From: Caldisericum exile AZM16c01
GTDB lineage: Bacteria; Caldisericota; Caldisericia; Caldisericales; Caldisericaceae
Assembly: GCF_000284335.1 (NCBI RefSeq)
Contig: NC_017096.1
Span: 248,001-312,000 of the forward strand
Direction of reading: 5' to 3'
DNA length: 64,000 bases
In this document: positions 1,780-21,389 of the stretch, one piece after another
How the letters are laid out: each line of letters starts with the position of its first letter
How positions within the stretch are numbered: position 1 is the stretch's first letter
The notes under the pieces: generated by a model
The model's input: only the letters and a program-made list of their open reading frames with translations
Database searches by the model: none
Told to the model about the DNA's origin: nothing
Program-made: the position numbers and the translations under genes

Positions 1780-2572
1780 TAGATTTAAAGAAGGTGATTT
1801 AGTTGAAGTTATCGATTCAAAGGATAGAATTTTCCTCTTGAAACTTAAAAAGGGCGAAAAATCACACTTCCACTTTGGAATCCTCGAGCATGATTCAATC
1901 ATAGGAAAAGTTAACGGAAGTTTTGTAAAATCCCTCAAGGGAGACGAGGTTTTGGTTTTCAAAGTGCGCACTCCATTTTACACGGTGCATATGCGAAGGG
2001 TTTCTCAAATTATCTATCCAAAAGATGTTGGAGCAATTGTCATACATGCGGATATTCACCCAGGGCTTAGAGTATTTACAGCAGGCGGAGGAGCAGGAGC
2101 GCTTGCAATTTCTCTTCTTCAAATGCTTCATGGCAGAGGCAAACTTATTGTTTATGAAATTAGAAGTGATTTTATTGATGTGTTCCTTGCAAATGTTTAT
2201 GACTTTTTTAAAGAAATTCCCAAAAATCTTATCATAAGAAGAAAGGATATATATGCTGAACCAGTTGAAGAAAATGACGCACCTTTTGATAGAGTGATCT
2301 TAGATGTGCCGGAGCCGTGGCGTGCGTTAAAAACAGTTAAAGATGCGCTTGTCCCCGGTGGAATTCTCATAAGTTATAGTCCAACAACGCAACAGATAAC
2401 TGAGATGAAACAAGCACTTGATGACTCAAAAGAATTTTACAATCTTGGCACTTTTGAAATTATAGAGAGGCGATGGAAAGTTGAGGCACTTTCAACGCGT
2501 CCTGTTGATAGAATGGTTGCACATACTGCCTTTATACTTGTTGCAAGAAAGTTAAGTAAAAAAAAGCCATAG
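1772..2572 (+). CDS. trmI: tRNA (adenine-58-N1)-methyltransferase TrmI
   Basis: A 266-residue class I SAM-dependent methyltransferase. After an N-terminal beta-barrel-like region (1-70), a SAM loop TAGGGAGALAISLLQML lies near 105-121, followed by an acidic YEIR turn. The LDVPEPW segment corresponds to the D-x-PEPW substrate motif of TrmI. TrmI works as a tetramer and makes m1A58 in the T-loop. The ATG overlaps the end of ttuA by eight bases, so the two are co-translated. In Thermus m1A58 favours 2-thiolation of T54, which gives the pairing a functional logic. The stop codon TAG at 2570-2572 is also the first three bases of the duplicated cas6 unit. Confidence 0.87.
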   Translation: MGNRFKEGDLVEVIDSKDRIFLLKLKKGEKSHFHFGILEHDSIIGKVNGSFVKSLKGDEVLVFKVRTPFYTVHMRRVSQIIYPKDVGAIVIHADIHPGLRVFTAGGGAGALAISLLQMLHGRGKLIVYEIRSDFIDVFLANVYDFFKEIPKNLIIRRKDIYAEPVEENDAPFDRVILDVPEPWRALKTVKDALVPGGILISYSPTTQQITEMKQALDDSKEFYNLGTFEIIERRWKVEALSTRPVDRMVAHTAFILVARKLSKKKP

Positions 2573-2576
2573 GGAC

Positions 2577-2604
2577 TTGACACAAAATTATTTTCGTGTA
2601 TAAT
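2577..2604 (+). promoter_or_regulatory. Promoter of cas6 copy 1
   Basis: Perfect consensus boxes: TTGACA at 2577-2582 and TATAAT at 2599-2604, separated by 16 bp. A strong AAGGAGG lies at 2611-2617, five bases before the ATG at 2622. The same sequence drives the second cas6 copy. Confidence 0.85.
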
Positions 2605-2621
2605 ATATATAAGGAGGAGTA

Positions 2622-3392
2622 ATGAGAATAAAGTTAACCTTCGAGGACATTAAGGGTCGTGAAATTATCCTTCCCATTCATTACGGATATCTCTTGCATT
2701 ACCTTGTCTACAATACTTTTTCAGAAGGTATGGCACAGAAGTTATACCTTGAAGGCTTCCCAATCGACGGCAAAAAGTTCAAACTCTTTACCTTTTCAAA
2801 TATCATCGAAAAAGGCACAAAGTTCAACAACACTTTAAATTTTGGTAAATATATCACATTCTACTTTTCATCTCCTCTTTATGAAATCGTTGAAGATCTT
2901 GGCTCAAATGCCTTTAGAAAAACAGGAATTGTCCTAAATGACTTTAACCTTTTTTTATCAGCAGTTGAAGTGATAAAACCCCCACGATTGACAGACGACA
3001 TACTTATCCGCACACTATCACCCATCACTGCCTATAGCACCTTCAACAACAATGGCAAACGCACAACGCACTACTATCGCCCAACTGAAAGCGAATTCAA
3101 ACGGCTCATTGAAGAGAATGCACAAAACAAATACATTTTGATTAAAAAAGCCCAAGGCTTACCTATTGAGAAAGATATCGTTAATGACCTTCACCTTGAT
3201 ATTGAGCCTTACAAATTTTCCATCGAAAAGAACAAAAAAGTAGTTTATTTTAAAAATACAATTGTTGAATGCTTCTCAGGTATCTACAGATTGAAAGGCT
3301 CTCCCGAACTTATCTACACAACCTATGATGCAGGGCTTGGTGCCAAGTCCTCCGAAGGCTTCGGTATGTGGGACGTGTGGGAGAAAGGGTGA
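2622..3392 (+). CDS. cas6: CRISPR endoribonuclease Cas6, copy 1 (orphan)
   Basis: A 256-residue RAMP-fold protein. The N-terminal beta strand and a PIHYGYLLHYLVY helix with candidate catalytic histidines (20, 26) are followed by the C-terminal glycine-rich loop GLGAKSSEGFG (238-248), the signature of Cas6. Cas6 cuts pre-crRNA within repeats. Compared with the copy at 12333 it differs at only three residues (F58Y, I186V, H191R, this copy listed first). No array or other cas gene is adjacent: it sits between trmI and an unrelated surface protein, 9.7 kb upstream of the cas operon. It is clearly different from the cas6 at 13299. The perfect promoter and intact frame suggest it is expressed. Confidence 0.88.
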   Translation: MRIKLTFEDIKGREIILPIHYGYLLHYLVYNTFSEGMAQKLYLEGFPIDGKKFKLFTFSNIIEKGTKFNNTLNFGKYITFYFSSPLYEIVEDLGSNAFRKTGIVLNDFNLFLSAVEVIKPPRLTDDILIRTLSPITAYSTFNNNGKRTTHYYRPTESEFKRLIEENAQNKYILIKKAQGLPIEKDIVNDLHLDIEPYKFSIEKNKKVVYFKNTIVECFSGIYRLKGSPELIYTTYDAGLGAKSSEGFGMWDVWEKG

Positions 3393-3586
3393 AAATTTAG
3401 TGGAAGGATATGGCTAAGACGATATATTTAAAGATTAGGAAAAATTTACATGGAGGGTTAAAAATTGGAAGAAAGTTTTAAAAACAACATCTGCATAGTG
3501 GCAATTTTATTTTTTGTTTAAAGTTTTATTTTAGCTTACCTGTGAAGGTTTTAAGCTATAAATTTATTGAAAAGGAGGTTATAGGC

Positions 3587-6218: not shown

Positions 6219-6252
6219 CCTCCGAAGGCTTCGGCATGTGGGACGTGTGGGA
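6219..6252 (+). repeat. 34-bp remnant of the 3' end of cas6
   Basis: These 34 bases are identical to bases 13060-13093 of the downstream cas6 copy and differ by one base from 3349-3382 of the upstream copy. They encode the Cas6 glycine-rich C-terminus. Homology stops abruptly on both sides. The remnant shows that cas6 DNA has been involved in more than one rearrangement here. Confidence 0.9.
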
Positions 6253-6307
6253 AAGGAATACAAGATGAAGTTTTTGGGTAAAAGACATTATATCTTAGGA
6301 GGGTAAA

Positions 6308-6907
6308 ATGGATGAATTAAAGATTCTTTCAAAACTTATAGAAAAAGGATCAGAAGGAGCATCAAAAACGGATTTAAAAATTAAAAAAGGCGAAGAAGAT
6401 GTTCTAAGTAAAATGATTGAAAATGGGCTTATCCGTTCAGAAAAAATTAAGGGAAAAGAGCGCTTTTTCATCACGGAAAAGGGTGAAAGTGAATTTTTGT
6501 CGAAAACTGAGGAAGACGAATTTCAAAAGTTCGTTAAAGAAAAGATCTTAGAGATTGAGAGTGAAATTAAAAAACTAAATGTAAACTTCGAAAATTTTGT
6601 TAAGTTGCTTCAATCAAGAAAATCTCCCAATATTTCGTTAAATACTGTAAATTTGGAGGAACTGTTGCACAGAGTATATGATGAACTTTCAACAAAAGAT
6701 TACTCATACCTTAAGGGGCTTGTACCCATAGTTTCATTAGTTTCAACGCTTGTGCAGAAGTTTAACGTGCCGAAATATGAGGTTGAAAAGGTTATTTATG
6801 ATTTGTATCTTTCAGGCAAAGCCTCTCTTGAATACGGTGATAAGAAAGAAGGTGCACTTAAGGCACCTGATGGAAAAGAATACTACTATGTAAGACTAAA
6901 GAAATGA
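6308..6907 (+). CDS. Winged-helix protein partnered with the downstream ATPase
   Basis: I do not recognise a named family. The 199-residue, highly charged protein looks like an N-terminal winged helix (about 1-60: helix-turn-helix spacing, then a KERFFITEKG wing), a coiled-coil linker (about 65-105, heptad-like EILEIESEIKKL), and a second small helical or winged domain (about 110-199) ending in a YYYVRLKK strand. An AGGAGGG Shine-Dalgarno precedes the ATG. The stop overlaps the ATG of the ATPase by four bases (ATGA), so the two proteins are made together and probably form a complex. There is no signal peptide or catalytic motif. A role as DNA-binding or adaptor subunit of a defence ATPase is inference from structure and location. 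Confidence 0.6.
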   Translation: MDELKILSKLIEKGSEGASKTDLKIKKGEEDVLSKMIENGLIRSEKIKGKERFFITEKGESEFLSKTEEDEFQKFVKEKILEIESEIKKLNVNFENFVKLLQSRKSPNISLNTVNLEELLHRVYDELSTKDYSYLKGLVPIVSLVSTLVQKFNVPKYEVEKVIYDLYLSGKASLEYGDKKEGALKAPDGKEYYYVRLKK

Positions 6908-8868
6908 AAGACTGGAAAGAAGTTCTTCTTGATAGAAGTTTACCCAGCCCAATTCCGCCACCTCCTTATTCCAACTTGGAACAGAGTTTTGGCTTTTTAG
7001 ACAGGGAAAACGAGATAAAAGAGTTTCTTGATCTAATAAATAAGGCAGTTATTGAGCATAGAGGCTTTTTAATATTTCTTCTTGGAGATCAAGGTAAGGG
7101 CAAAACGACTTTTTTAAAATACATAAAAGAAAATTACTTCTACCCTTCAAAAGACAATAGCGATAAGTTATTCGTTTCTATGCATTTTCCGCAGGAACTT
7201 TCAGAACTTGACTTTTCTTTTATCTTTACTAAATATATCGGAGAAATTGTTAACTCGGGATTAATTGACAAATTGCGCGATAGAGTTGTTTATGAATTAA
7301 ACTCAACATTAGGTTTAAACCTTGAATACACCGACAAAAACCAAGTAATAGATTTTCTAACAAAAGTTAAGAACTTAGTTATAACGCTTCCTAAAAATCT
7401 TTTAAAGAACATGGAGATTATCACTTTTGTTATTTCCTCATACATATACTATCCTGAAATTCAATCTTTTATTGACTACGGCGAACAACCTAACAATCAA
7501 TTTTTGGGTCTTTTAAAGCATGGACCTAATGAAGTTTCTGTTTCGAAAATATATTTATTTTCAAAATTTCTTAGAGATTTCATGGGTATAAAGCATACAG
7601 TATTCTCAATTGACGACTTCGACATTCTTGAAAGAAACGAAAATGTGTATAGAACTCTCTACAAATTACTTATGAGTTTTAGAAACGCAAACCTCGTCGA
7701 AGAGTTTAGCATCGTCCTTTCAGGATCTGTGTCATTTTACGAGGAGTTTATACAATCGCTTTCACAGAATGAAAGGCAGAGAATTGAAAATTGGGGTTAT
7801 CCAATCTTCTTCGAAAGTTTAGACACAAAGGACGTATTAGACTTAATTAAACGCTCCTTTTCAAATTTTTGGATGAATTACAATGTAATACCGCCAGATA
7901 ATCCGTACGGTGTGTTTAGTAGTGACTCTATTTCCTTTTTATACACATATACCAACAAAGACATTAGGGAAACTTTGAGGAAACTCTACGATTTAATAAA
8001 CGAAATGAGATCGTTGGGTAATATCGTTGATTATTCCGATGTGAAGAAGATAATTAGCAAATTTAAAGTGGATAAGGTTGGGTTAAAAGATGTTGAATTA
8101 AACTATTTCAAAAACTTACTTATTGAAAAGGTTAAGTTATTCAAAAGTTCTGATTTTATAAACGAAAAGTTAAAAGATGCTTTCAATAAACTCATTAAAT
8201 ATTACGAAAGTAGGAGTATTTCAATAAGAGCAGAAAAAGAAGTAAACATTAATGGAAGTTTTGCAGACGTATTGCTAACAGTTAATAAAATAAACGAAGG
8301 AATGCGTTATGAAATTATATTTGAGGTGAAAATAAAGGACTCAGAAGTAAGTGAAGAGGAAATTTCATCAAGGATAAACTTAATTAAAGGAAATGAGAGG
8401 CGTTATCTTTATTGGATTTCGAGATCAAAACTCCATGAACTTGATTACACAGACGGAAATGACAAAAAAAGAATTTTAAGAGATACTCCATTAACAGAGA
8501 CTGAAATAGCCTATCTTTCTTACCTTGTCCACATTCCAGAAATTTTTGGTTGGGATAAATTTGAAGATAATGACCTTGAGTTGATATTGAAACAGAGCGG
8601 CATAAATATGGATTTAATTCTTAATTTGCAGGCACCAAAAGAAGATAAACCTTCCAACATTTATGCACTTTTTGAGGAAATACTGGATAGATTCTTGAAG
8701 GAAGAAAAGATATACGTTTTAAAAAAGACCGTTTTAAGAGAAGTTAGAGGCAAAGGCTTTAAAGATTTTAGCGACGAGTATCTAATGGGTGTTTTAAGTG
8801 AGGTTGCACATCAGAAGAATCTGAGAATAACCGATTCCCAAATAAGGTTTGACATTAAAAAAATTTAG
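6904..8868 (+). CDS. AAA-type ATPase with PD-(D/E)XK-like and winged-helix C-terminus
   Basis: A 654-residue protein I cannot assign to a named system. Residues 15-21 form a proline-rich stretch. The P-loop NTPase domain has Walker A GDQGKGKT (61-68), Walker B HTVFSIDD (231-238, Asp237/Asp238) and a sensor-like VLSGS (271-275), resembling Orc/STAND-type AAA ATPases. A helical lid follows to about 430. Residues 435-520 fit a restriction-endonuclease-like core: acidic residues at 443/446, FADVLL with Asp455, then IIFEVK with Glu474 and Lys476. Residues 585-654 look like a winged helix. The gene overlaps its winged-helix partner by four bases. ATPase plus nuclease fold plus DNA-binding domain beside restriction and CRISPR genes suggests anti-phage function, which is inference. 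Walker motifs are certain; the nuclease-like domain is moderately supported. Confidence 0.7.
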   Translation: MKDWKEVLLDRSLPSPIPPPPYSNLEQSFGFLDRENEIKEFLDLINKAVIEHRGFLIFLLGDQGKGKTTFLKYIKENYFYPSKDNSDKLFVSMHFPQELSELDFSFIFTKYIGEIVNSGLIDKLRDRVVYELNSTLGLNLEYTDKNQVIDFLTKVKNLVITLPKNLLKNMEIITFVISSYIYYPEIQSFIDYGEQPNNQFLGLLKHGPNEVSVSKIYLFSKFLRDFMGIKHTVFSIDDFDILERNENVYRTLYKLLMSFRNANLVEEFSIVLSGSVSFYEEFIQSLSQNERQRIENWGYPIFFESLDTKDVLDLIKRSFSNFWMNYNVIPPDNPYGVFSSDSISFLYTYTNKDIRETLRKLYDLINEMRSLGNIVDYSDVKKIISKFKVDKVGLKDVELNYFKNLLIEKVKLFKSSDFINEKLKDAFNKLIKYYESRSISIRAEKEVNINGSFADVLLTVNKINEGMRYEIIFEVKIKDSEVSEEEISSRINLIKGNERRYLYWISRSKLHELDYTDGNDKKRILRDTPLTETEIAYLSYLVHIPEIFGWDKFEDNDLELILKQSGINMDLILNLQAPKEDKPSNIYALFEEILDRFLKEEKIYVLKKTVLREVRGKGFKDFSDEYLMGVLSEVAHQKNLRITDSQIRFDIKKI

Positions 8869-9024: not shown

Positions 9025-9940
9025 TATGAGGAAATCCCCTACAGTTGATGAATTGAGGAAGAAAAATTAAGTTTCTCATTTGAAAATAAACAAGCGAAAC
9101 CTATTCTTGTTGTATATGCAAAGTGCGAAGAAAGCATTCAGAATTATCAAGATGTAGTGATAGAGGCTATCCTTAACATATTGCATCAAGCAAAAAGCCC
9201 ATCTTTATCTTGTAAAAGGCTCCGGAAAACATTTATTTTAGCCATATTGTGATTGATGAATGCCATAGGATTGTCCAAAGAAAAATCAAAAGACTATTTC
9301 TTTTGTGTGAAGGGAATTTACGCTAATGCAATTGCAAACGAATGAATAATATGTATGCAGGGTGGTTTCGTAAAATTGCAAGGTAAGTGGACTCCTATGC
9401 GTTTAAGTGCACCGCATTTATGTTTTACTCAATTACAACGGGCGTTGATGTTCCAATTTTTCAAAATGTGGTTTTCTTTAAGTGTGGTAAATCGCAAATT
9501 GCTTTTCAAAAGCTTCTTGTAAGAGTTTCAAGAATACCACCCAACTAACAAGCTTATGTTTAGAGTTTATGCATATCCGATATTAATTTAAACTCGGAAA
9601 AATTACATTTGAGGAATATAAAAAAATTAATTGCATCCAAGGTACTTGAGGAAGTTAAAAATTCTTTCTCACTTACAGGAAATTTGGATTGACCCTCAAA
9701 AAAGAAAAGCCTTTATTGAATCTTTTCCAAATGGTGTTTCAGGAATAAAAATACTTCAAGAGTTATTCGGATTACGTAATACACCTGAAGTTAGGTAATC
9801 AATCGGACTTGAATCTCTTAAAATTTATGGAACCCCAAAGAAAAATTGCGCAAAATACTTGAAAAAGAACTTGAAACAAATAATGAATTGCATCAATCAA
9901 TTCTTAATAAAGGTTTCAGAGGAGAAATATAGTATGAAGT
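9025..9940 (+). pseudogene. Degraded type I restriction subunit HsdR (EcoEI-like)
   Basis: No intact gene exists between 8869 and 10051, but helicase motifs survive in shifting frames. A NYQDVVIEAIL segment near 9140 resembles the Q-motif region. A GSGK P-loop scrap near 9220 runs almost directly into VIDECHRIVQ (DECH box, about 9249-9281), so DNA between motifs I and II is missing. ITTGVDVP (9432-9455) and a following QKLLVRVSRI match motifs V-VI of HsdR. A later WIDPQKRKAFIESFPNGVSG piece matches the HsdR C-terminal region. Several stops and frameshifts make it non-functional. The stretch 8869-9024 before it holds only a 10-bp inverted repeat (8881-8890 / 8938-8947) and nothing else I can identify. 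Confidence 0.65.
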
Positions 9941-9994
9941 AAATTGATGTTAAATATACGAAAATTATCGTAAAGGCATACCTGCTTGGCTCTC

Positions 9995-10051: not shown

Positions 10052-11434
10052 ATGAGATTCATAGACAGAGAAAAAGAATTAAGTGCCTTAGAAAGGTTTT
10101 GGAAGGAAAATAAGCCACAATTTGTTGTAATTTATGGAAAAAGACGCGTTGGTAAAACAGAATTGATCAAGCAATTTATTAAAGATAAGCCCCATATTTA
10201 CTTCTTAGCACAGAAAATAAGCGATAATGATAACTTAAAAATGCTTTCAAAATTAGTTGGCGAATATTTCAAAGATATAATTCTTCAATCAAGTGGTTTT
10301 GCAAATTGGCAGACATTTTTTGCGTATTTAAAAGAAAAAATAAAGGAGAAAATTGTTGTTGTAATTGACGAATTTCCCTATCTTGCAGAAGCAAACAAAG
10401 GCATTTCATCAATTTTTCAAGCAGGCTGGGATGAATTTTTAAAAGAGACACCAGTGTATTTAATCATCTGTGGCTCAAGCATTGCAATGATGGAACAAGA
10501 AGTCCTTGGATACAAAGCCCCTCTTTATGGAAGAAGAACAGGGCAAATTCTTGTGAAGCCTTTTGATTTTTATGAAGCTTCAGCATTCTTCCCAAAGTTA
10601 TCTTTTGATGAAAGACTTTCCTTTTTTTCGATTGTGGGAGGAAACCCAAGTTATCTAAACAAAATAAACCCAGAAAAATCACTTGAAGATAACATAAAAG
10701 ATAATTTTCTTTCTCCAGAAGCAACTCTCTATAGCGAAGTGGAATTTATACTTCATGAAGAACTGCGAGAACCAAGAAACTATTTTGCAATATTAAGAGC
10801 AATTGCACAGGGAAAAGCAAGAGTAAGTGAAATAATAAATGAAACAGGCTTCGAAAAAAGTATTCTTCATAAGTATCTTTTTGTACTCGAAGACTTACAG
10901 ATAATTGAGAAGGAAGTTCCTATAACAGAAAAGAATCCTCAAAAATCGAGAAAAGGTATCTATAAACTGCAAGACCAGTTCTTCAAATTTTGGTTTAAAT
11001 ACGTATTGCCCAATAGAAGTAGAATTGAAGAAGGAAAAATAGATGTGGTATTAAAGAAAATAATGGAAGATTTTAATACTGTTGTTGCTGAGAATTATGA
11101 AAGGGTAGCACAGGATATCTTAAAAAGACACGAGGAAGAATTTTTTCCCTTTGAAAGTATCGGAAGATGGTGGGACAGAAACGAGGAAATCGATGTTGTT
11201 GCCTTGAATAAGATTGAAAATAAAATACTATTTGGCGAGGTAAAGTGGAGCAATAAACCTGTAGGGGTAGACATTTATGAGAATTTAAAGAGAAAAGCAA
11301 GTTTAGTTGAGTGGAAAAAAGAAGGTAGAAAAGAATATTATTGTCTATTCTCAAAAAGTGGATTTACAGATGAAATGAAAAAAATAGCAAAAAAGGGAAA
11401 TGTAATGCTTTTTCAAAAAGACAACGTAATATAA
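10052..11434 (+). CDS. ATPase_2/DUF234 family ATPase (AAA plus PD-(D/E)XK)
   Basis: A 460-residue protein of the ATPase_2 plus DUF234 family, common in archaea and thermophilic bacteria. Walker A is GKRRVGKT (29-36), Walker B is VVVIDEF (102-108), a sensor-like CGSS follows at 140-143, and a LYGRR arginine motif at 158-162. A winged-helix region spans about 245-300. The DUF234 C-terminus carries a nuclease-like signature: EEIDVVAL with Asp381 and LFGEVKW with Glu396 and Lys398. The biological role of the family is not settled; association with mobile and defence regions is common. It sits between pieces of a dead type I restriction system and has its own palindrome-covered promoter, so it is probably independently regulated. 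Confidence 0.85.
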   Translation: MRFIDREKELSALERFWKENKPQFVVIYGKRRVGKTELIKQFIKDKPHIYFLAQKISDNDNLKMLSKLVGEYFKDIILQSSGFANWQTFFAYLKEKIKEKIVVVIDEFPYLAEANKGISSIFQAGWDEFLKETPVYLIICGSSIAMMEQEVLGYKAPLYGRRTGQILVKPFDFYEASAFFPKLSFDERLSFFSIVGGNPSYLNKINPEKSLEDNIKDNFLSPEATLYSEVEFILHEELREPRNYFAILRAIAQGKARVSEIINETGFEKSILHKYLFVLEDLQIIEKEVPITEKNPQKSRKGIYKLQDQFFKFWFKYVLPNRSRIEEGKIDVVLKKIMEDFNTVVAENYERVAQDILKRHEEEFFPFESIGRWWDRNEEIDVVALNKIENKILFGEVKWSNKPVGVDIYENLKRKASLVEWKKEGRKEYYCLFSKSGFTDEMKKIAKKGNVMLFQKDNVI

Positions 11435-12280: not shown

Positions 12281-12287
12281 TAGGGAC

Positions 12288-12315
12288 TTGACACAAAATT
12301 ATTTTCGTGTATAAT
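12288..12315 (+). promoter_or_regulatory. Promoter of cas6 copy 2
   Basis: TTGACA at 12288-12293 and TATAAT at 12310-12315 with a 16-bp spacer, identical to the promoter of copy 1. It may also contribute to transcription of the type I-B operon, because no strong terminator is seen between 13103 and 13299. Confidence 0.83.
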
Positions 12316-12332
12316 ATATATAAGGAGGAGTA

Positions 12333-13103
12333 ATGAGAATAAAGTTAACCTTCGAGGACATTAAGGGTCGTGAAATTATCCTTCCCATTCATTACGGGTA
12401 TCTCTTGCATTACCTTGTCTACAATACTTTTTCAGAAGGTATGGCACAGAAGTTATACCTTGAAGGCTTCCCAATCGACGGCAAAAAGTTCAAACTCTTT
12501 ACCTATTCAAATATCATCGAAAAAGGCACAAAGTTCAACAACACTTTAAATTTTGGTAAATATATCACATTCTACTTTTCATCTCCTCTTTATGAAATCG
12601 TTGAAGATCTTGGCTCAAATGCCTTTAGAAAAACAGGAATTGTCCTAAATGACTTTAACCTTTTTTTATCAGCAGTTGAAGTGATAAAACCCCCACGATT
12701 GACAGACGACATACTTATCCGCACACTATCACCCATCACTGCCTATAGCACCTTCAACAACAATGGCAAACGCACAACGCACTACTATCGCCCAACTGAA
12801 AGCGAATTCAAACGGCTCATTGAAGAGAATGCACAAAACAAATACATTTTGATTAAAAAAGCGCAAGGCTTACCTATTGAGAAAGATGTCGTTAATGATC
12901 TTCGCCTTGATATTGAGCCTTACAAATTTTCCATCGAAAAGAACAAAAAAGTAGTTTATTTTAAAAATACAATTGTTGAATGCTTCTCAGGTATCTACAG
13001 ATTGAAAGGCTCTCCCGAACTTATCTACACAACCTATGATGCAGGGCTTGGTGCCAAGTCCTCCGAAGGCTTCGGCATGTGGGACGTGTGGGAGAAAGGG
13101 TGA
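12333..13103 (+). CDS. cas6: CRISPR endoribonuclease Cas6, copy 2
   Basis: The same 256-residue Cas6 as at 2622, with three substitutions (Tyr58, Val186, Arg191). The glycine-rich loop near residues 238-248 and the histidine-bearing N-terminal helix are intact. It precedes, by about 195 bp, a second and very different Cas6 at 13299 that is translationally coupled to cas8b. The locus therefore encodes two Cas6 types. This one may process transcripts of another repeat family, perhaps the decayed ATTGAAAC-type repeats at 23482-23581 or arrays elsewhere; that is inference. Confidence 0.88.
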   Translation: MRIKLTFEDIKGREIILPIHYGYLLHYLVYNTFSEGMAQKLYLEGFPIDGKKFKLFTYSNIIEKGTKFNNTLNFGKYITFYFSSPLYEIVEDLGSNAFRKTGIVLNDFNLFLSAVEVIKPPRLTDDILIRTLSPITAYSTFNNNGKRTTHYYRPTESEFKRLIEENAQNKYILIKKAQGLPIEKDVVNDLRLDIEPYKFSIEKNKKVVYFKNTIVECFSGIYRLKGSPELIYTTYDAGLGAKSSEGFGMWDVWEKG

Positions 13104-13144
13104 AAATTTAGTGGAAGGATAAGATTTAAGAAAGGAGGAAACTA

Positions 13145-13270
13145 ATGGTTGAAACGATTGCAAAAATTGGAAAGATGACCAGGAAATTGAATGGAAGATT
13201 TTTTAGCAAAATGAAATATTGTAAAATATTACAAATAGACTGTATAACTTTATATTTTAAAAATGCTTAA
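13145..13270 (+). CDS. Possible 41-residue peptide between the two cas6 types
   Basis: A short frame with an excellent AAAGGAGG Shine-Dalgarno five bases upstream of its ATG. It encodes 41 basic residues starting MVETIAKIGKM and containing two cysteines. The opening resembles the first residues of Csh1-type Cas8 proteins, so it may be the stub of an older cas8 gene. It could equally be an accident between the repeat end at 13121 and the next gene. Nothing else occupies 13122-13298. Confidence 0.3.
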   Translation: MVETIAKIGKMTRKLNGRFFSKMKYCKILQIDCITLYFKNA

Positions 13271-13298
13271 ATATTTGCAGAAAGAAGGGAGGAACGAT

Positions 13299-14117
13299 TT
13301 GAGAGCGAAAGTAATTTTTGATGTCGAAGGAGAAAAGATGCCTATACTTTATAGGCACAGGTTTATGGACCTAATAATTTCCGCATTAGCTGAGTCTAAT
13401 AGAGATTACAAATTGTTTCTTTACCCTGAAGATAAAACAGATCGAAAAATAGTTAAGCCTTTTACATTCAGTGTTATGTTACCTCAAAATTATTATCTAA
13501 AAAAAGAGAAGTTCAAAATTTTCGACTTTGAAGTTGAAGATATCGTTTTCTATCTTTCGAATGATAAGAGAATTTCACTTTTTATAAGTTCTTGTAGTTA
13601 CGAATTTTTTGTGAATCTATATAATGGCTTATTAAGTTTAAAAGAATTCAAGTTTAGTAGTGATCTGACTTTGAAACTCTCCAAAGTTTATATGTTGAAC
13701 GAGAGGAAAATCAACTCTAAAGAAGTTGTGCTTAAAACTATGTCTCCAATTCTTATAGAAACAGCCAATGATAAACCTATAATACCATTTGATGAAAGTG
13801 GCGATTTACTAAAAGAAGAATCGCTCTCGGTTTTTAACGAGGAATTTAATGCTTTACACAATAGAATTCTAAAAGATATTCGCGGTTTTCAGTTATACGA
13901 AAAATTATTCTTCAGTCCTGTGAAGATTAGAAAACAGGTCGTAAAACATGCATTAAGAGATTTTACGAAACAAACTGGTAAGCCGTATATGATACTTACT
14001 ACTTTTGAGGGTATTTTTAAACTCAGAGGAGACCCTAAAGATTTATTGATGCTTTATCAATTAGGTATTGGCTTAAGAACTGGGCAAGGTTTTGGGATGG
14101 TAGAGGTGATAACATGA
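13299..14117 (+). CDS. cas6: Cas6 endoribonuclease of the type I-B operon
   Basis: I place the start at the TTG at 13299, six bases after a GGGAGG (13287-13292), rather than at an ATG 36 bases upstream that lacks a Shine-Dalgarno. This gives 272 residues beginning directly with the first RAMP beta strand. The YRHRFMDLIISAL helix has a candidate catalytic His. The C-terminal FEGIFKLRGDP strand and GIGLRTGQGFG loop are the Cas6 signature. It shares no close identity with the duplicated Cas6. The stop overlaps the cas8b ATG by four bases, so this is the Cas6 dedicated to the operon and most likely cuts the array at 21623-23081, leaving an 8-nt handle ending in AAAG. Confidence 0.85.
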   Translation: MRAKVIFDVEGEKMPILYRHRFMDLIISALAESNRDYKLFLYPEDKTDRKIVKPFTFSVMLPQNYYLKKEKFKIFDFEVEDIVFYLSNDKRISLFISSCSYEFFVNLYNGLLSLKEFKFSSDLTLKLSKVYMLNERKINSKEVVLKTMSPILIETANDKPIIPFDESGDLLKEESLSVFNEEFNALHNRILKDIRGFQLYEKLFFSPVKIRKQVVKHALRDFTKQTGKPYMILTTFEGIFKLRGDPKDLLMLYQLGIGLRTGQGFGMVEVIT

Positions 14118-15769
14118 GCGAGAAATTTAAGGTTTATCTTTCTGATTGGCTGTTCAATGCTGGAATAATTGGTTTTCTCAAAATAATGACCAACGATAAT
14201 ATTGAGGATCAAAAAATTGTTACTATTGGAGAGAATTATATTGAGTTCGAAAGAGAATCTATTAAAGGTTTCTCAGAGAAGTATTTCAATACCGCTTTCA
14301 AACAATATGGTAGATACGATAGAACTTTACAAACTTTAAAGGAATTTTTAGAGGATCTTAGAAATGTAAGAGATTCCAAGAACTTGGAAACTATTTCTAG
14401 AAAGTATGAGGTTGATAAAAACAATTTAGGTTTAGAACTACCTTTGTATTTATTTAACCGTTTTAAAAATAAATTTCCCTATTTTAAGTTCTTAAACAAT
14501 GTTCTTCCTGATGATGAAGAGATTAAAAAAGATCCAAATAAAGTTGAAAAAATCTTTGAAGAAGTTGCAGCTTTGGAAGAAAAACATAAGGAAATTTATC
14601 AAAAAATCCTCGAAAATGACGTTCGATCGTACCTTAAAAATATATATGGACAAAAGAGCTTTCTTAATAATTCAATAAGGACAGGTATTTTTAATAAATT
14701 CTATAATGATTTCGAAAAACCAATTGTTGAAAATACTGTAAAACAAGAAAGCGAACTTTACTGTGTAAATTGCGGGCGTCCTGCTAAGAAGGATACTTCT
14801 TTCGACACAGGTATCTCCCCCTTTTTTGGGATTAATAAAGATGCAAGCAATTTCTTATGGAAATTTAATACCAAACTACCATTATGTGAGATATGTGAAC
14901 TCATCTATTTTTGTAGTTTTGCTGCACTTACGCCTTCCGTATACACAAAAGATAAGACTTTTTATTTCGTTAACAGCGATTCGAGTGTAATCGATTTGTA
15001 CCAGAAAAACAGACTTTTGTCTTTAGTCCTTAAGAAAGAAGGGAATCCTATTTTAGATTTTTTTCCAGAACTAATTATTGAACTACAGAAAGAAAAGGCA
15101 TATTTTTCATTAAGAAACATAGCTTTAATTGAGTTAAACCTTAATGATGGCAATTTTCCAAAAATATACTCTTTTAACATTTCCAAAGCCAAGGCATTAT
15201 ACCTGAATGAAAATGCAAATACTCTGAAAAAACTTGCAAAAGCCTCTTATAAGATAAAAGATAAGGAAAGATATGTTTTATTCGAAACAATAGAGAAAAT
15301 TCTTAGAAACGAAATCAACTACGAATTCCTTTACAGCCTTGAGCGGATGTTTTTAAGTAATTCTAACAAAAACAAACAAAATCTCAATCCATATCATTTA
15401 CAGGTTTTGAATTTATTGATTTTAAATTTTATAAAAAATACCAAAAACGAAGGGAGGAATAAAATGGATTTAGAAGAAAAAGAAGTATGGAATATTTATT
15501 TCAAAGGAAAAGAACTTTCTAAAAAAATGAGAGATAGAAACGCAGAGAACAAAATCCATACAATTGCATACAAGCTGCTTAATGCACTTAAAGCAAGTGA
15601 TGTAAATTATTTTATGGATGTTATTATGAGAACTTTTATGGCATACGAAATGGAAATACCATCTGATATGGTAAAAGTACTTTTAAAGAAGGATAACTTT
15701 TATCCTTTGGGTTATGGATTTTTAAACGGCTTTTTAGACAAGAAAGGAGATGAAAAAGAAAATGAGTAA
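14114..15769 (+). CDS. cas8b: Type I-B Cascade large subunit Cas8b (Cst1)
   Basis: A 551-residue protein with two paired cysteine motifs, CVNCG (about 217-221) and CEIC (about 256-259), the CxxC-CxxC zinc site that gives the Cst1 family its name. The large subunit recognises the PAM and recruits Cas3. The sequence is lysine- and asparagine-rich and poorly conserved elsewhere, as is normal for Cas8. Its position between cas6 and cas7 is standard for the Tneap-type I-B operon. It overlaps cas6 by four bases and cas7 by eight. A possible internal ATG with a GGGAGG upstream lies at 15464 and could yield a separate small subunit of about 100 helical residues, as reported for some I-B and I-D large subunits. 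Confidence 0.8.
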   Translation: MSEKFKVYLSDWLFNAGIIGFLKIMTNDNIEDQKIVTIGENYIEFERESIKGFSEKYFNTAFKQYGRYDRTLQTLKEFLEDLRNVRDSKNLETISRKYEVDKNNLGLELPLYLFNRFKNKFPYFKFLNNVLPDDEEIKKDPNKVEKIFEEVAALEEKHKEIYQKILENDVRSYLKNIYGQKSFLNNSIRTGIFNKFYNDFEKPIVENTVKQESELYCVNCGRPAKKDTSFDTGISPFFGINKDASNFLWKFNTKLPLCEICELIYFCSFAALTPSVYTKDKTFYFVNSDSSVIDLYQKNRLLSLVLKKEGNPILDFFPELIIELQKEKAYFSLRNIALIELNLNDGNFPKIYSFNISKAKALYLNENANTLKKLAKASYKIKDKERYVLFETIEKILRNEINYEFLYSLERMFLSNSNKNKQNLNPYHLQVLNLLILNFIKNTKNEGRNKMDLEEKEVWNIYFKGKELSKKMRDRNAENKIHTIAYKLLNALKASDVNYFMDVIMRTFMAYEMEIPSDMVKVLLKKDNFYPLGYGFLNGFLDKKGDEKENE

Positions 15770-16679
15770 GGGATTGACTTACACGGCAATTTTTGAAGCG
15801 ATGAGCTTGAACTATGGAGAAGGCACAGGTAATATTTCTGAGTTAAAAAAAATTACTAAAGGTGGGGAAACATATACTTACGTTTCACGACAAGCTATAA
15901 GGTATGATATTTACCGTTTGTTAAGAGAGAACTTTTTTGTTGATGATAAGGAGGTTCCTCTTACTAAGGAGCAGCAGGTTGTCCAATTCAAGCCTGATGC
16001 TAACATCAAAGATTATGTTGAAATGGACTTGTTCGGATACATGAAAACAGCTAAGGGGCAGAAGTCGGGTTCACGTCCCGCAGTTGTTCGAATAAGTCCT
16101 GCTATCTCTCTCGAACCCACATTGGGCGACATTGAGTTTGGAACTAACAAGAATTTTGCAGATCGAGTAGGAGCAGATCCCAATCCTTTCCAATTTGAAA
16201 ATCATTATTCTCTTTATACCTATACAATTACGATTGATTTAGACAAAGTTGGCAAAGATGAAAACGATAACATCGATCTTTCGACAAGCGAAAAAGCTGA
16301 CCGTGTAAAAATGCTACTTGAAGTACTTAAAGTGTTGAACAGAAATATCAAAGGTAGAATTGAAAACCTAAACCCCGTTTTTGCAATAGGTGGAGTTTAT
16401 AATATTAAAAATCCATTCTTTTTAAACCGGATAAAGGTTAAATATGACAGGAATAGTGGAAAGTACGCTCTTGACACTGAAATAATAAATTCAGTGCTTG
16501 ACTTAAACTTTGGCAATGAGCCTGTACGGGATAAAACATACGTTGGTTACTTAAAAGGATACTGGGCCAATGAAGAGGAATTTAATAAATTGGTCAACAA
16601 CCCAACCAATATTGGTTTATTTTTTGAAAATCTTGAGAATGAAGTTTTTAAAAATTATGGAGTAGAATTTAAGAAATGA
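15762..16679 (+). CDS. cas7: Cascade backbone protein Cas7 (Cst2/DevR)
   Basis: I choose the ATG at 15762 (305 residues, MSKGLTYTAIF); the ATG at 15750 directly abuts its Shine-Dalgarno. The family hallmarks are the N-terminal beta strand followed by SRQAIRYDIYRLL, a SGSRPAVVRISPAISLEPT segment and the C-terminal GGVYNIKNPFF region. Cas7 polymerises along the crRNA spacer to make the Cascade filament. It overlaps cas8b by eight bases and cas5 by four, so stoichiometry must be set by translation rate. Confidence 0.85.
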   Translation: MSKGLTYTAIFEAMSLNYGEGTGNISELKKITKGGETYTYVSRQAIRYDIYRLLRENFFVDDKEVPLTKEQQVVQFKPDANIKDYVEMDLFGYMKTAKGQKSGSRPAVVRISPAISLEPTLGDIEFGTNKNFADRVGADPNPFQFENHYSLYTYTITIDLDKVGKDENDNIDLSTSEKADRVKMLLEVLKVLNRNIKGRIENLNPVFAIGGVYNIKNPFFLNRIKVKYDRNSGKYALDTEIINSVLDLNFGNEPVRDKTYVGYLKGYWANEEEFNKLVNNPTNIGLFFENLENEVFKNYGVEFKK

Positions 16680-17395
16680 AAGTGTTAAAGATTAAAGCAT
16701 ATCAACCTTTTGCCTGTTACAGAAAACCAATGAATTATAATTTATGGGACACCTATCCACTACCACCATTATCTACGATTAAAGGATGGTTTCATAGTGT
16801 TATAAAGGCCAAAGAATATATCCCCTTGTCAATTAGTATTCAAGGAACTTATGCTGCTATAGTTTACGATATGCAGACCTTGCTTAAGTTTGATCGGATA
16901 AGAAGAGACGAGAAACAAATAATAATGGATTGGATAGGAAAAGCGCTCATCTCATCCCCAACATTTATTGCAACCCTATTGGACGTTGATCTTATTATTT
17001 ATATTTATTCTGAAAGCAAGGAATCATTAGATGCGTTCAGAGATAACATTTTAAAAGAAGATTTTCCGAGCATTGGAAGACATGAAGATTTAGCAAGAAT
17101 TGATTTTGTCGATTTTGTCGATTTAGAGGAAGCCAAGTTTGATGTGAGAAATGCCCATGACTTGACATACGGTATATATTTAAGTAAAGAAACGGCACTT
17201 AAATATGGACTTGGTGGAATTAATTATAGAATGAACACCAAGTATGTAATTAAATCCAATTTAAGATATTTTGAAAAGGTAGACGTGGTTTATGTAGATA
17301 ATGGTAGAATTGATAAAGGAAATTTTCTTTTTGACAAAGAGGATAACAGAATTGTGGAGCTTATAAATTTGGAAAGCAAAAATGACAATTGCTAA
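16676..17395 (+). CDS. cas5: Cascade subunit Cas5 (Cst5-type)
   Basis: A 239-residue RAMP protein. The N-terminal strand MKVLKIKAYQPFACYRKP leads into a Y-PLPPLSTIKGWFHSV segment characteristic of Cas5t. Cas5 caps the 5' handle of the crRNA and contacts Cas8. The ATG overlaps the cas7 stop by four bases and the gene overlaps cas3 by 14 bases. No catalytic His is needed here because Cas6 is encoded separately. Confidence 0.83.
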   Translation: MKVLKIKAYQPFACYRKPMNYNLWDTYPLPPLSTIKGWFHSVIKAKEYIPLSISIQGTYAAIVYDMQTLLKFDRIRRDEKQIIMDWIGKALISSPTFIATLLDVDLIIYIYSESKESLDAFRDNILKEDFPSIGRHEDLARIDFVDFVDLEEAKFDVRNAHDLTYGIYLSKETALKYGLGGINYRMNTKYVIKSNLRYFEKVDVVYVDNGRIDKGNFLFDKEDNRIVELINLESKNDNC

Positions 17396-19628
17396 AGTAT
17401 TTTTTAAAGAAAATGGACAATTCGAAATTGAGACTTTAGAGCAACATACCGATAATTTATTAAAAAACTACGAAAATTTTAAGACGAAATACGAAGGTGA
17501 TTTGTCGAGATTAGAATTAGGGAAAAATTTCTTGGAATTATTGAGAATAGCCTGTATTTTTCACGACCTCGGAAAAGTTTCTTCTGCTTTTCAAAACAAA
17601 GTAAAAAGACTTTTAAAGAAAAATGAAGAATTTCATAAAGATCAAAGCGAAGAGATACCTCATAATTTTCTCTCTGTTGCGTTTCTGCCAGATCAAAACT
17701 TGCTTAATTTGAGTGCAGACGAAGAATACTATAAGTTATTTTATGCAATTGCATTTCATCATGACAGGAAAATTAATTTTACTGAACAAGATCTAAAAAA
17801 AGTTATTAATGAAGATCTCTCAAAAAAAATCGAAGAACTTTCCTGGATTAAAAAGTATGGTCTAAGTATATCAGAAAATTTGTGGGACAATTACTATAAG
17901 CTTCTTGATCTTAATTCATCAAATATATTTAATAGAATAAGGAGAGATAGAGAATTTATTTTATTGAAAGGTTTATTACATAGATTAGACCACTCATCAT
18001 CAGCACATTTACCTGTCGAAACAGAGAAAATTGAAGAGCCAAGAAGCAAACTTGTTAGCTATATTAAAGATAACGGTAGTACGCTAAAAGATTTTCAGAA
18101 AGAAGCGGAAAAGTATTCTGATAAAAACGTAATACTTACTGCCTCAACCGGGATAGGGAAAACTGAATTTGCATTGAACTGGATAGGTGAACAAAAGGCG
18201 TTTTATACGCTTCCTGTAAGGGTGTCCGTGAATGCGATGTATGAAAGATTTGCTGAAATTTTCGGTCCAGAAAAAGTAGGTCTTCTCCATAGCGATAGTT
18301 TATTCTATAACTTGGATTTTTTCTCAAACAAGTATGATATCTGGGAAGAAGACTCAGGAATTGAAGAAGGTATACACAGGACACTTCTCTCAAGACAACT
18401 ATCTTTACCAATTACCGTGACAACAGCGGATCAGATGTTTACTTCGGTCTTTAAGTGGAGAGGTTACGAAAAAATTTATGGAACTCTAATGTATTCAAAA
18501 GTTATCATAGATGAGCCACAAAGTTATTCGCCTCAGATACTCGCGATGATAATTAAGTCTTTGGAAGAGATCTCAGATCTTGGAGGTAAGTTTTGCATTA
18601 TAAGTGCAACAAATCATCCTTTTGTGTTGGACCAATTAATGAGGATAAATAACAAACCTGAAATAATTGGACCTGTTTTAGATAATGGAGAAAGACATAA
18701 GCTAAAGATAGAGGATTCAGAAATTGAAGATTTAACCTTGACAATAAAGAAATATTATGACGAGGGCAAAAAAATTATTGTGCTTGTAAATACTGTAAAT
18801 AAAGCACAGGAAGTTTTTAAGAAATTCAAGGAAATAGGAAATGTGAAAATGCTTCATTCGCAGTTTATCCAGCGTGACAGAAGAAATAAAGAAAAGGAAA
18901 TAATGAAGGATCAAAAAGAAAGCGGGCCTGTTATTTGGATAACAACCCAAATTATCGAAGCATCACTGAATATTGATTACGACGTATTGTTTACAGAGAT
19001 TTCTTCGTTAGACTCTTTGATTCAAAGAATGGGAAGAATATACAGGGGCAGAGGTAGATATATAAGCAAATCTGATTTTCCCAATGTTTTCATTAGTAGT
19101 GTCGATCCATCGGACAATTTTAAGATATATGATAAGGAAATTGTTAGTTTCACTAAAGATGTTTTATCAAAATATGATGCTAAAATAATAACAGAAGACA
19201 TAAAAATTGAAATGATGAAAAACGTTTATGATACGAAGAGGATTGAAGGCACTAAATATTACAAAAAGTTTAAAGAAGCATTTGCTTTGTTAGAAAGTGG
19301 ATTCGAATCGCAAACAAAGGATGAAGCGCAAAAACTATTTAGAGATATTGCAAATCTTCTTGTTATTCCTGAGAATGTCTACATAGAAAACAAAGAAAAA
19401 ATAGAAGATGCACTTTCTGTAATAAACGACAAGAACCAAAATTTGGCTAAAAGAGTTGAGGCTATAAAAAGCTTTAATGAGTTTACTGTAAGTGTCCCTT
19501 TATACAAGGTTAACCGATCACAAATTGAAAAAAAAGACAAAGTATATGTAGTAAAAGCACACTATGACCAAAATATGGGACTGTTTTTTAGTAATCATGA
19601 TGATGACCTTTTTTCTAATATAATTTAA
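17382..19628 (+). CDS. cas3: CRISPR helicase-nuclease Cas3 (HD fused)
   Basis: A 748-residue HD nuclease-SF2 helicase fusion that degrades target DNA after Cascade binding. HD ligands are visible: His22, His61-Asp62 (FHDLGK), His94, His126/His127 and the HRLDH cluster at 200-204. Helicase motifs: Walker A TASTGIGKTE (253-262), DEPQ box (377-380), SAT (408-410), and a C-terminal domain with a QIIEASLNID motif and an RMGRIYRGRG arginine finger region. Both halves look intact, so the system is probably active. DEPQ instead of DEVH/DEAH is within normal Cas3 variation. It is co-translated with cas5 (14-base overlap) and touches cas4 by one base. Confidence 0.92.
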   Translation: MTIAKVFFKENGQFEIETLEQHTDNLLKNYENFKTKYEGDLSRLELGKNFLELLRIACIFHDLGKVSSAFQNKVKRLLKKNEEFHKDQSEEIPHNFLSVAFLPDQNLLNLSADEEYYKLFYAIAFHHDRKINFTEQDLKKVINEDLSKKIEELSWIKKYGLSISENLWDNYYKLLDLNSSNIFNRIRRDREFILLKGLLHRLDHSSSAHLPVETEKIEEPRSKLVSYIKDNGSTLKDFQKEAEKYSDKNVILTASTGIGKTEFALNWIGEQKAFYTLPVRVSVNAMYERFAEIFGPEKVGLLHSDSLFYNLDFFSNKYDIWEEDSGIEEGIHRTLLSRQLSLPITVTTADQMFTSVFKWRGYEKIYGTLMYSKVIIDEPQSYSPQILAMIIKSLEEISDLGGKFCIISATNHPFVLDQLMRINNKPEIIGPVLDNGERHKLKIEDSEIEDLTLTIKKYYDEGKKIIVLVNTVNKAQEVFKKFKEIGNVKMLHSQFIQRDRRNKEKEIMKDQKESGPVIWITTQIIEASLNIDYDVLFTEISSLDSLIQRMGRIYRGRGRYISKSDFPNVFISSVDPSDNFKIYDKEIVSFTKDVLSKYDAKIITEDIKIEMMKNVYDTKRIEGTKYYKKFKEAFALLESGFESQTKDEAQKLFRDIANLLVIPENVYIENKEKIEDALSVINDKNQNLAKRVEAIKSFNEFTVSVPLYKVNRSQIEKKDKVYVVKAHYDQNMGLFFSNHDDDLFSNII

Positions 19629-20137
19629 TGAAAGATAAAAACTTTGACGAATTAAAAATCACTGGATTAAGAATTAATTATCTTCATGTATGTAAAAGGA
19701 AGCTATGGCTCTTTGATAGGGGAATTAGAATGGAGCATACATCTAATATGGTCTTATTAGGCTCATTACTCCAAGACTATTATTACCAAAGGAAGGAAAG
19801 GAAAAACATTCTAATTGATAATCTTATTCAAATAGATATAATAGACAACGAGTCGATCAGAGAGGTGAAGTATTCAAATAAACTCAAGGAAGCCGACGAA
19901 GCACAGCTTTTATACTATCTTTACTATCTTAAGAGACTTGGTGTTTCCAAGAAAGGTATATTGAACTACCCAAAGATTAAAAGAAGAGAAGAACTTATTT
20001 TGACTGAAGAGCTTGAGAAAGAAGTAGAAAAAGATTTAGAAGAAGCAAAAAAAGTTTTGTCGCTTAATAAGCCTCCGAAAGTTGAAAAAAAGACATTTTG
20101 CTCAAAATGTGCCTATTTTGAATTCTGCTGGAGTTAA
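19628..20137 (+). CDS. cas4: Adaptation nuclease Cas4
   Basis: A 169-residue RecB-like nuclease. Cys22 near the N-terminus and Cys158, Cys161 and Cys167 at the end form the four-cysteine iron-sulfur site. The nuclease core has IQIDII with Asp70 and IREVKY with Glu79 and Lys81, followed by the EADEAQLLYYL motif IV helix. Cas4 trims prespacers and helps select the PAM side during adaptation. It lies between cas3 and cas1 with one-base and two-base junctions. Its length is at the short end of the family but all key residues are present. Confidence 0.92.
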   Translation: MKDKNFDELKITGLRINYLHVCKRKLWLFDRGIRMEHTSNMVLLGSLLQDYYYQRKERKNILIDNLIQIDIIDNESIREVKYSNKLKEADEAQLLYYLYYLKRLGVSKKGILNYPKIKRREELILTEELEKEVEKDLEEAKKVLSLNKPPKVEKKTFCSKCAYFEFCWS

Positions 20138-20139
20138 CA

Positions 20140-21120: not shown

Positions 21121-21122
21121 TT

Positions 21123-21389
21123 ATGTCTTATATGATTGTTGTGTATGATGTGGAAGAGGAAAGAATAAACAAAGCAAGAAAAGTTCTAAAGAAATATTTT
21201 CTGTGGGTTCAGAATTCCGTTTTTGAAGGGGAAATTACGGAAGGTAAATTTGAAAAGTGTAGAATAGAATTATCAAAGGTGCTCGATTTAAAAAGAGATT
21301 CGATTTACTTTTATAGAATCGAGAATAAGTTTAATTATAAGAAAGTTGTGCTTGGAATAGAGAAGGAGATTACCGATAATTTTATATAA
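21123..21389 (+). CDS. cas2: CRISPR adaptation protein Cas2
   Basis: The start is the ATG at 21123, giving 88 residues (MSYMIVVYDVEEERINKARK). The ferredoxin-like fold with Asp9 in VVYDV and a KYFLWVQNSVFEGEI strand is the Cas2 signature. It forms the bridge of the Cas1-Cas2 integrase. It is the last gene of the operon and is followed by the leader. Confidence 0.93.
   Translation: MSYMIVVYDVEEERINKARKVLKKYFLWVQNSVFEGEITEGKFEKCRIELSKVLDLKRDSIYFYRIENKFNYKKVVLGIEKEITDNFI

What the first reader, a model, noticed from the sequence alone, without database searches (positions are those of the whole stretch)
6308..8868. Unassigned two-gene module: winged-helix protein plus AAA ATPase with nuclease-like and winged-helix C-terminus
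The 199-aa winged-helix/coiled-coil protein and the 654-aa ATPase overlap by ATGA. The ATPase has intact Walker A/B, a D455...E474-x-K476 arrangement like a PD-(D/E)XK core, and a C-terminal winged helix. I know no named defence system with exactly this pair. Its position in an island with a dead restriction system, another ATPase-nuclease and duplicated cas6, next to a CRISPR locus, makes it a candidate undescribed anti-phage system.
Basis: partly seen in the sequence, partly recalled or inferred. Interest (0 to 1): 0.72.

Follow-up and report, generated by a model that had tools for sequence, protein, structure and literature searches.

The report
CRISPR-linked ATPase–nuclease gene pair
Next to a CRISPR immune locus in a hot-spring bacterium sits a conserved two-gene unit, a DNA-binding protein plus an ATP-driven enzyme with a predicted DNA-cutting domain, that fits no named defence system and in a relative is part of the CRISPR operon itself.

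Summary
The two genes are real: 199 aa and 654 aa, ATGA overlap, good ribosome-binding site. The small protein is a tandem winged-helix/coiled-coil protein. The large one is an ORC/Cdc6/TnsC/RdrA-like AAA+ ATPase followed by a predicted PD-(D/E)XK domain (model topology alpha-beta-beta-beta-alpha-beta; D455, E474 and K476 invariant) and a winged helix. No Pfam, NCBIfam, PHROGs or PADLOC family claims either gene. Orthologous pairs occur in three other Caldisericota MAGs (a fourth MAG has a truncated first gene at a contig end), always with the ATGA overlap and under purifying selection. In G019 the pair heads the type I-B operon: wHTH–AAA–WYL regulator–cas6–cas8–7–5–3–4–1–array. In the window it lies 3.5 kb upstream of a different I-B operon, directly behind a decayed cas6 end and between two near-identical cas6 copies. 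New here: both proteins are remotely related to a chromosomal three-gene unit of Caldisericaceae (also in this genome) whose third gene is a separate Cas4/Exo5-like nuclease; in the CRISPR-linked version the nuclease is fused to the ATPase. Best reading: an ATP-gated, DNA-loaded nuclease module recruited as an accessory of type I-B CRISPR-Cas. Antiphage function is inferred, not shown.

The parts
6308..6907 (+). Gene 1: 199-aa tandem winged-helix / coiled-coil protein
   Evidence: ORF with AGGAGG at 6297-6302; AF2 model pLDDT 83.6 with wHTH 3-66, coiled coil 69-104, wHTH 116-199; Foldseek matches to wHTH proteins, e.g. SSV1 F-93 and Sso10a-2; orthologues 39-53% identical
6904..8868 (+). Gene 2: 654-aa AAA+ ATPase with PD-(D/E)XK-like and winged-helix C-terminus
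   Evidence: ORF overlapping gene 1 by ATGA; orthologues 42-46% identical over full length; Foldseek best matches RdrA, ORC/Cdc6, TnsC
7084..7107 (+). Walker A (residues 61-68, GDQGKGKT)
   Evidence: sequence; G66, K67, T68 invariant
7600..7626 (+). Walker B region (residues 233-241, VFSIDDFDI)
   Evidence: D237, D238, D240 invariant
8131..8433 (+). Predicted PD-(D/E)XK domain (residues 410-510); D455 = 8266-8268, E474 = 8323-8325, K476 = 8329-8331
   Evidence: AF2 secondary-structure order and invariance of the three residues in 4 homologues
8659..8865 (+). C-terminal winged helix (residues 586-654)
   Evidence: AF2 model, pLDDT mostly above 80
6219..6252 (+). Remnant of the 3' end of a cas6 gene just upstream of gene 1
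   Evidence: 34/34 bp identical to cas6 copy at 13060-13093 and 33/34 to 3349-3382
2570..3410 (+). cas6 copy 1 with its promoter (gene 2622-3392), left border of the inserted stretch
   Evidence: 99.2% identical to 12281-13121; Cas6 by Pfam
12281..13121 (+). cas6 copy 2 with its promoter (gene 12333-13103), right border
9052..9942 (+). Decayed HsdR/DEAD-helicase-like gene (context)
   Evidence: fragmentary frames with DECHR and GVDVP motifs, read by eye; no intact ORF of 80 aa or more here
10052..11434 (+). ATPase_2 + DUF234 protein, PADLOC candidate PDC-S27 (context)
   Evidence: Pfam 4e-32 and 2.5e-25; PADLOC 4.7e-55
13263..21389 (+). Type I-B cas operon: second cas6, cas8b1 (Cst1), cas7, cas5, cas3, cas4, cas1, cas2 (context)
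21602..23081 (.). CRISPR array, repeat GTTTTATCTGAACCATGTGGGATATAAAG (context)

Best explanation
The pair encodes an ATP-gated DNA nuclease module. The tandem winged-helix/coiled-coil protein binds DNA (probably as a dimer) and hands it to, or anchors, an ORC/Cdc6/TnsC-type AAA+ ATPase; ATP-driven assembly on DNA positions the fused PD-(D/E)XK domain to cut or trim that DNA. It is a divergent, nuclease-fused relative of a chromosomal wHTH-AAA-(separate Cas4/Exo5-like nuclease) unit, and has been recruited as an accessory of type I-B CRISPR-Cas loci, where it is expressed with the cas genes (in G019 apparently in one operon with a WYL regulator) and most likely destroys or processes foreign DNA. 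Shown: gene pair, co-conservation, invariant catalytic residues, predicted folds, cas linkage, remote kinship to the chromosomal unit. Inferred: DNA binding, ATP gating, cleavage, co-expression, antiphage role.
For: Pair always together with ATGA overlap in 4 genomes. Walker and ExK residues invariant. PD-(D/E)XK topology. Structure matches RdrA, ORC/Cdc6, TnsC; Cdc6 also by profile (E=0.003). G019 operon wHTH-AAA-WYL-cas6-cas8-7-5-3-4-1 plus array; in G031 the WYL gene follows and the same CRISPR repeat is present. The WYL gene adjoins cas6 in two further genomes. Amino-acid identity G019/G031: AAA 49%, wHTH 45%, WYL 63%, cas3 42%, cas4 60%, cas1 79%, against 87% for the adjacent PEPCK, while synonymous divergence of AAA and PEPCK is similar. 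Kinship to the chromosomal unit: hhalign score 65.9 over 295 columns for the ATPases (column shuffles at most 28.5; DnaA 33 and ATPase_2 45, P-loop only) and 54 over 170 columns for the wHTH proteins (shuffles at most 21.6).
Against: Only two independent cas-adjacent locations are assembled. G035 (100% complete, 6% contamination) has the pair but no detected cas6, and its contig ends inside the ATPase gene. The ATPase model is of moderate quality (pLDDT 70, from 4 sequences); sequence profiles do not confirm PD-(D/E)XK. The remote relatives lie in a vertically inherited, housekeeping-looking context, so repair is possible. Without the P-loop part, the ATPase kinship score drops to 30.
Confidence: 0.5

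Rival explanations
1. Adaptation helper: the module processes DNA ends (RecBCD/AddAB-like role) and feeds prespacers to Cas4-Cas1-Cas2 rather than destroying DNA on its own.
For: Located in type I-B loci with cas1, cas2, cas4 and arrays; its chromosomal relative uses a Cas4/Exo5-like nuclease with four invariant cysteines. That RecBCD/AddAB feed spacer acquisition is from general knowledge; only shows they are discussed together.
Against: No helicase family match; several I-B loci in the phylum have cas1 and cas4 without the pair; no direct test.
Confidence: 0.2
2. Independent defence module that merely sits in the same defence island as CRISPR and works without Cas proteins.
For: In the window it lies among other defence-type genes (PDC-S27 candidate, decayed HsdR-like gene) and 3.5 kb from the operon; different cas8 types neighbour it in G000 (Cst1) and G019 (Cas_TM1802).
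Against: In G019 it overlaps the WYL gene and runs into cas6 without a gap over 35 bp; a cas6 remnant directly precedes it in the window.
Confidence: 0.3
3. DNA repair or replication-associated enzyme, paralogue of the lexA-adjacent unit, hitch-hiking beside cas genes.
For: The related unit is syntenic in 11 of 18 Caldisericaceae genomes, next to lexA in several, 79% identical between G000 and G003.
Against: The CRISPR-linked version is rare (4 to 5 of 54 phylum genomes), fast evolving and cas-adjacent, unlike a housekeeping gene.
Confidence: 0.2
4. Transposition module (TnsC plus TnsA-like fusion) of a CRISPR-associated transposon.
For: AAA+ resembles TnsC and PD-(D/E)XK followed by winged helix recalls TnsA (from memory).
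Against: No rve-type transposase in the window part of G000, and none at all in G019 or G031; cas3 and cas1 are present; TnsA Pfam models do not hit.
Confidence: 0.03

Closest known systems
Chromosomal wHTH-AAA-Cas4/Exo5-like nuclease unit of Caldisericaceae (no name found; in this genome at G000:C1:589150-591099)
   Same: Gene order wHTH then AAA with overlapping ends; remote similarity of both proteins over most of their length; a PD-(D/E)XK nuclease in the unit
   Different: Nuclease is a separate protein with four cysteines; ATPase lacks the ExK motif; lies by nicotinamidase and lexA, not cas
RADAR RdrA ATPase
   Same: Best Foldseek match of the AAA protein (E 2.5e-5)
   Different: No RdrB adenosine deaminase nearby; fused PD-(D/E)XK and wHTH partner instead; TM-scores low (about 0.2)
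ORC/Cdc6 and TnsC AAA+ loaders
   Same: Initiator-type AAA+ fold, winged helix, IDDFD Walker B
   Different: Fused nuclease domain; separate tandem-wHTH partner; no origin or transposase context
SspFGH / MADS (mad8) restriction modules
   Same: Distant relatives of the chromosomal unit (L105, L104) carry an FtsK-type translocase that matches SspH and mad8 models
   Different: Window pair has no FtsK protein and no modification genes; the match is to the FtsK domain only
Archaeal ATPase_2-DUF234 (PDC-S27), e.g. window 10052-11434
   Same: AAA plus winged helix plus a further C-terminal domain in one protein
   Different: Different families; profile similarity confined to the P-loop
Avs (antiviral STAND nucleases)
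   Same: ATPase and PD-(D/E)XK in one polypeptide (from memory)
   Different: Avs has an N-terminal effector and C-terminal repeat sensor (from memory); here the nuclease is C-terminal and no repeats are seen

Membership tests
PD-(D/E)XK nuclease superfamily | alpha-beta-beta-beta-alpha-beta core | tested here: met
   AF2 secondary structure 416-506, moderate-confidence model
PD-(D/E)XK nuclease superfamily | D...(D/E)xK catalytic residues conserved | tested here: met
   D455, E474, K476 invariant in 4 homologues down to 42% identity
PD-(D/E)XK nuclease superfamily | profile match to a member family | tested here: inconclusive
   PDDEXK_9 E=0.054 in 1 of 4; no PDB hit by sequence
AAA+ (ORC/Cdc6/TnsC-like) | Walker A, Walker B, sensor-2 arginine | tested here: met
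   invariant GKT, IDDFD, D353xR355; structure matches
RADAR | adjacent RdrB adenosine deaminase | tested here: not met
   no such gene in the window neighbourhood or in L012
SspFGH / MADS | FtsK-type translocase and DNA-modification genes next to the ATPase | tested here: not met
   neighbours contain none
CRISPR-associated transposon (CAST) | DDE transposase TnsB | tested here: not met
   no rve domain near the pair in G000; none in G019, G031
PADLOC-named defence systems | significant match to a component model | tested here: not met
   best LmuA E=0.01 and mad8 E=0.006
CRISPR-linked accessory genes | recurrent adjacency to cas genes in non-syntenic loci | tested here: met
   G000 (trmI side) and G019 (PEPCK side), two different I-B variants; small sample
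Antiphage system | experimental protection against phage | not testable with these tools
   requires experiment

The most novel reading that the evidence does not exclude
A previously undescribed CRISPR accessory system: a winged-helix/AAA+ DNA loader with a built-in PD-(D/E)XK nuclease that acts in type I-B immunity (as a second interference nuclease or a spacer-precursor generator), evolved from a chromosomal DNA-processing unit by exchanging a separate Cas4-like nuclease for a fused one, and controlled by the same WYL regulator as cas.
Probability: 0.35. Interest if true: 0.75.

Novelty: new variant of a known kind. Interest (0 to 1): 0.52.

Why it matters
It would add an ATP-driven nuclease unit to type I-B CRISPR loci and tie it to a chromosomal wHTH–AAA–nuclease unit, giving a concrete case of a DNA-processing machine being moved into adaptive immunity. 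It also gives a clean test: same ATPase pair, fused versus separate nuclease, inside versus outside a cas operon. Thermophilic proteins make biochemistry practical. The present evidence is limited to four genomes of one phylum.

Tried and rejected
Family libraries (Pfam, PADLOC, NCBIfam, PHROGs) gave no assignment. Plasmid, phage and viral-contig searches found no homologue of the ATPase; the viral scan with the wHTH C-domain was also empty. The genome-contig scan found only the records behind G031 and G035. Profile searches over 386 genomes found no ortholog outside Caldisericota; weak other-phylum hits of the ATPase profile covered the P-loop region only. CAST reading rejected by absence of a transposase. 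Promoter and terminator scans were uninformative (7 and 1 hits against 11.8 and 1.1 expected). No PD-(D/E)XK match in PDB by sequence; viral fold library gave only generic AAA and nuclease matches. Literature searches found no paper on this pair; the library holds open-licence papers only. The wHTH-like gene of L105 is not convincingly related to the Caldisericaceae wHTH by profile.

Full report
Identity of the genome. The window is bases 248001-312000 of a single 1,558,103-base contig, 99.98% complete. From memory this size fits Caldisericum exile; a phylum relative fetched carries the title Caldisericota. Kinship labels (family f1 is called Caldisericaceae here) follow the search tool's grouping.

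Gene 1 (6308-6907, 199 aa) and gene 2 (6904-8868, 654 aa) overlap by ATGA, with AGGAGG five bases before the first start codon. AlphaFold2 on gene 1 (pLDDT 83.6, two domains joined flexibly, pTM 0.43) shows a winged helix, a 36-residue helix, and a second winged helix; Foldseek finds winged-helix proteins such as SSV1 F-93 and Sso10a-2. Gene 2 has a AAA+ domain with a long helical insertion between strand 2 and Walker B, a lid with D353-x-R355, then alpha-beta-beta-beta-alpha-beta at 416-506 and a winged helix at 586-654. D455 is in the second strand and E474-x-K476 at the end of the third, as in PD-(D/E)XK enzymes. All are invariant in four homologues of 42-46% identity to it. Sequence profiles alone do not prove the nuclease (PDDEXK_9 E=0.054 in one of four; none in PDB), so this step is supported, not proven. 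The best structural matches of the whole model are RdrA, ORC/Cdc6 and TnsC, with low TM-scores that reflect a medium-quality model.

Known libraries. No Pfam, PADLOC, NCBIfam or PHROGs family claims either protein.

Relatives. In 54 genomes of the phylum the wHTH gene is found in G000, G019, G031, G035 and, cut by a contig end, G023; the ATPase in G000, G019, G031, G035. Profile searches of 386 genomes spread over bacterial families find no further ortholog. In every complete case the two genes overlap by ATGA. Between the close pair G031/G035, dN/dS is 0.13 for the ATPase and 0.20 for the wHTH protein, so both are under purifying selection.

CRISPR link. In G019 the order on one strand is wHTH–AAA–WYL regulator–cas6–cas8 (Cas_TM1802)–cas7–cas5–cas3–cas4–cas1, followed by a long array. 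AAA and WYL overlap by 4 bases and WYL ends 33 bases before cas6. In G031 the pair is followed by the WYL gene, where the contig ends; cas3-cas4-cas1-cas2 and the same repeat lie on another contig. The WYL gene also adjoins cas6 in G007 and G037, which lack the pair, so WYL belongs to the cas loci and the pair is an optional addition. In the window the flanks differ (isochorismatase, PP-loop protein, trmI), the operon is another I-B variant (Cst1-type Cas8), and the pair lies 3.5 kb upstream of cas6 copy 2, so the two locations are not syntenic. If each placement within 4 kb of a cas operon had a chance of about 0.005, two would occur by chance with about 3e-5; defence islands make the true figure larger.

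Rearrangement in the window. cas6 with its promoter is duplicated (2570-3410 and 12281-13121, 99.2%), and a 34-bp perfect remnant of the cas6 3' end lies at 6219-6252, 55 bp before gene 1. In G003 the same chromosomal site has trmI–cas6–cas8 with nothing inserted. The 8.9-kb stretch between the cas6 copies, including the pair, was therefore probably gained here, by recombination at cas6 (inference).

Rates. Between G019 and G031 amino-acid identities are: cas3 42%, wHTH 45%, AAA 49%, cas4 60%, WYL 63%, cas1 79%, PEPCK (the adjacent host gene) 87%; synonymous divergence of AAA (1.07) and PEPCK (0.94) is similar. The pair changes at the pace of cas effector genes.

A chromosomal relative. The weak wHTH hit in G004 led to a three-gene unit: wHTH, AAA and a nuclease (PDDEXK_1; Cas4-like; four invariant cysteines), present in 11 of 18 f1 genomes, including G000 at 589150, beside nicotinamidase and often lexA. 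Profile comparison of ATPases: score 65.9 over 295 columns from Walker A to sensor 2, against at most 28.5 in 40 column shuffles, and 33 to 45 limited to the P-loop for DnaA and ATPase_2 alignments. wHTH proteins: 54 over 170 columns, shuffles at most 21.6. With the P-loop part removed the ATPase score is 30, still in register from Walker B to sensor 2. Together with the same gene order this makes common descent likely (about 85%, my estimate). The related ATPase has no ExK motif at the matching place; its nuclease is a separate gene. The chromosomal ATPase in turn matches one in another phylum over 465 columns (L105), where the third gene fuses an RNase D-like exonuclease, a Cas4/RecB-like nuclease and an FtsK translocase. 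So AAA plus small DNA-binding-like gene plus PD-(D/E)XK nuclease is a recurring set with the nuclease attached in different ways; the kinship of the small gene in L105 is not established.

Mechanism. The best-supported account is a DNA-bound, ATP-gated nuclease: wHTH protein and AAA+ assemble on DNA and the PD-(D/E)XK domain cuts it. In CRISPR loci it most likely acts on foreign DNA, either on its own or by supplying fragments for spacer acquisition. WYL proteins have been described as ligand-binding regulators of prokaryotic defence systems (title of Makarova et al. 2014, in the reference list of PMC6452270) and the WYL factor DriD binds single-stranded DNA made on damage (PMC12340889 abstract); a loop in which DNA breakage induces the operon is possible but untested.

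Verdict. A real, conserved, unassigned module, linked to type I-B CRISPR-Cas, of narrow known distribution. New variant of a known kind (AAA+–nuclease modules). Antiphage function remains a hypothesis.

Noticed in passing
window 2570-3410 and 12281-13121: cas6 plus its promoter duplicated at 99.2% identity, with a third 34-bp remnant at 6219-6252; relative G003 has a single cas6 at this site.
   Followed up: partly
G000:C1:589150-591099 (L092, L106): Syntenic wHTH-AAA-Cas4/Exo5-like nuclease unit beside nicotinamidase and lexA in 11 of 18 family f1 genomes, no named family.
   Followed up: partly
L105:6606-12211 and L104:10815-14596: Distant relatives of the chromosomal ATPase in other phyla: small gene, AAA, and RNaseD-RecB-FtsK fusion (L105) or AAA-FtsK fusion (L104); FtsK parts match SspH and mad8 models.
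   Followed up: partly
L017:1039-1317: Solo 92-aa copy of the C-terminal winged helix of gene 1 (40-49% identical) on a small mobile-element-like contig of G031; could be a decoy or counter-defence protein.
   Followed up: partly
window 10052-11434: Intact ATPase_2-DUF234 protein, strong PADLOC PDC-S27 candidate.
   Followed up: no
window 9052-9942: Decayed HsdR/DEAD-helicase-like gene between the pair and the ATPase_2 gene.
   Followed up: partly
window 3542-6196: 884-aa secreted protein that reads as a trypsin-like serine protease with repeat modules, inside the stretch between the cas6 copies (by eye, not searched).
   Followed up: no
L080:6436-7999: Prophage-like genes (amidase, holin-like, by eye) beside the CRISPR array of G031.
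   Followed up: no
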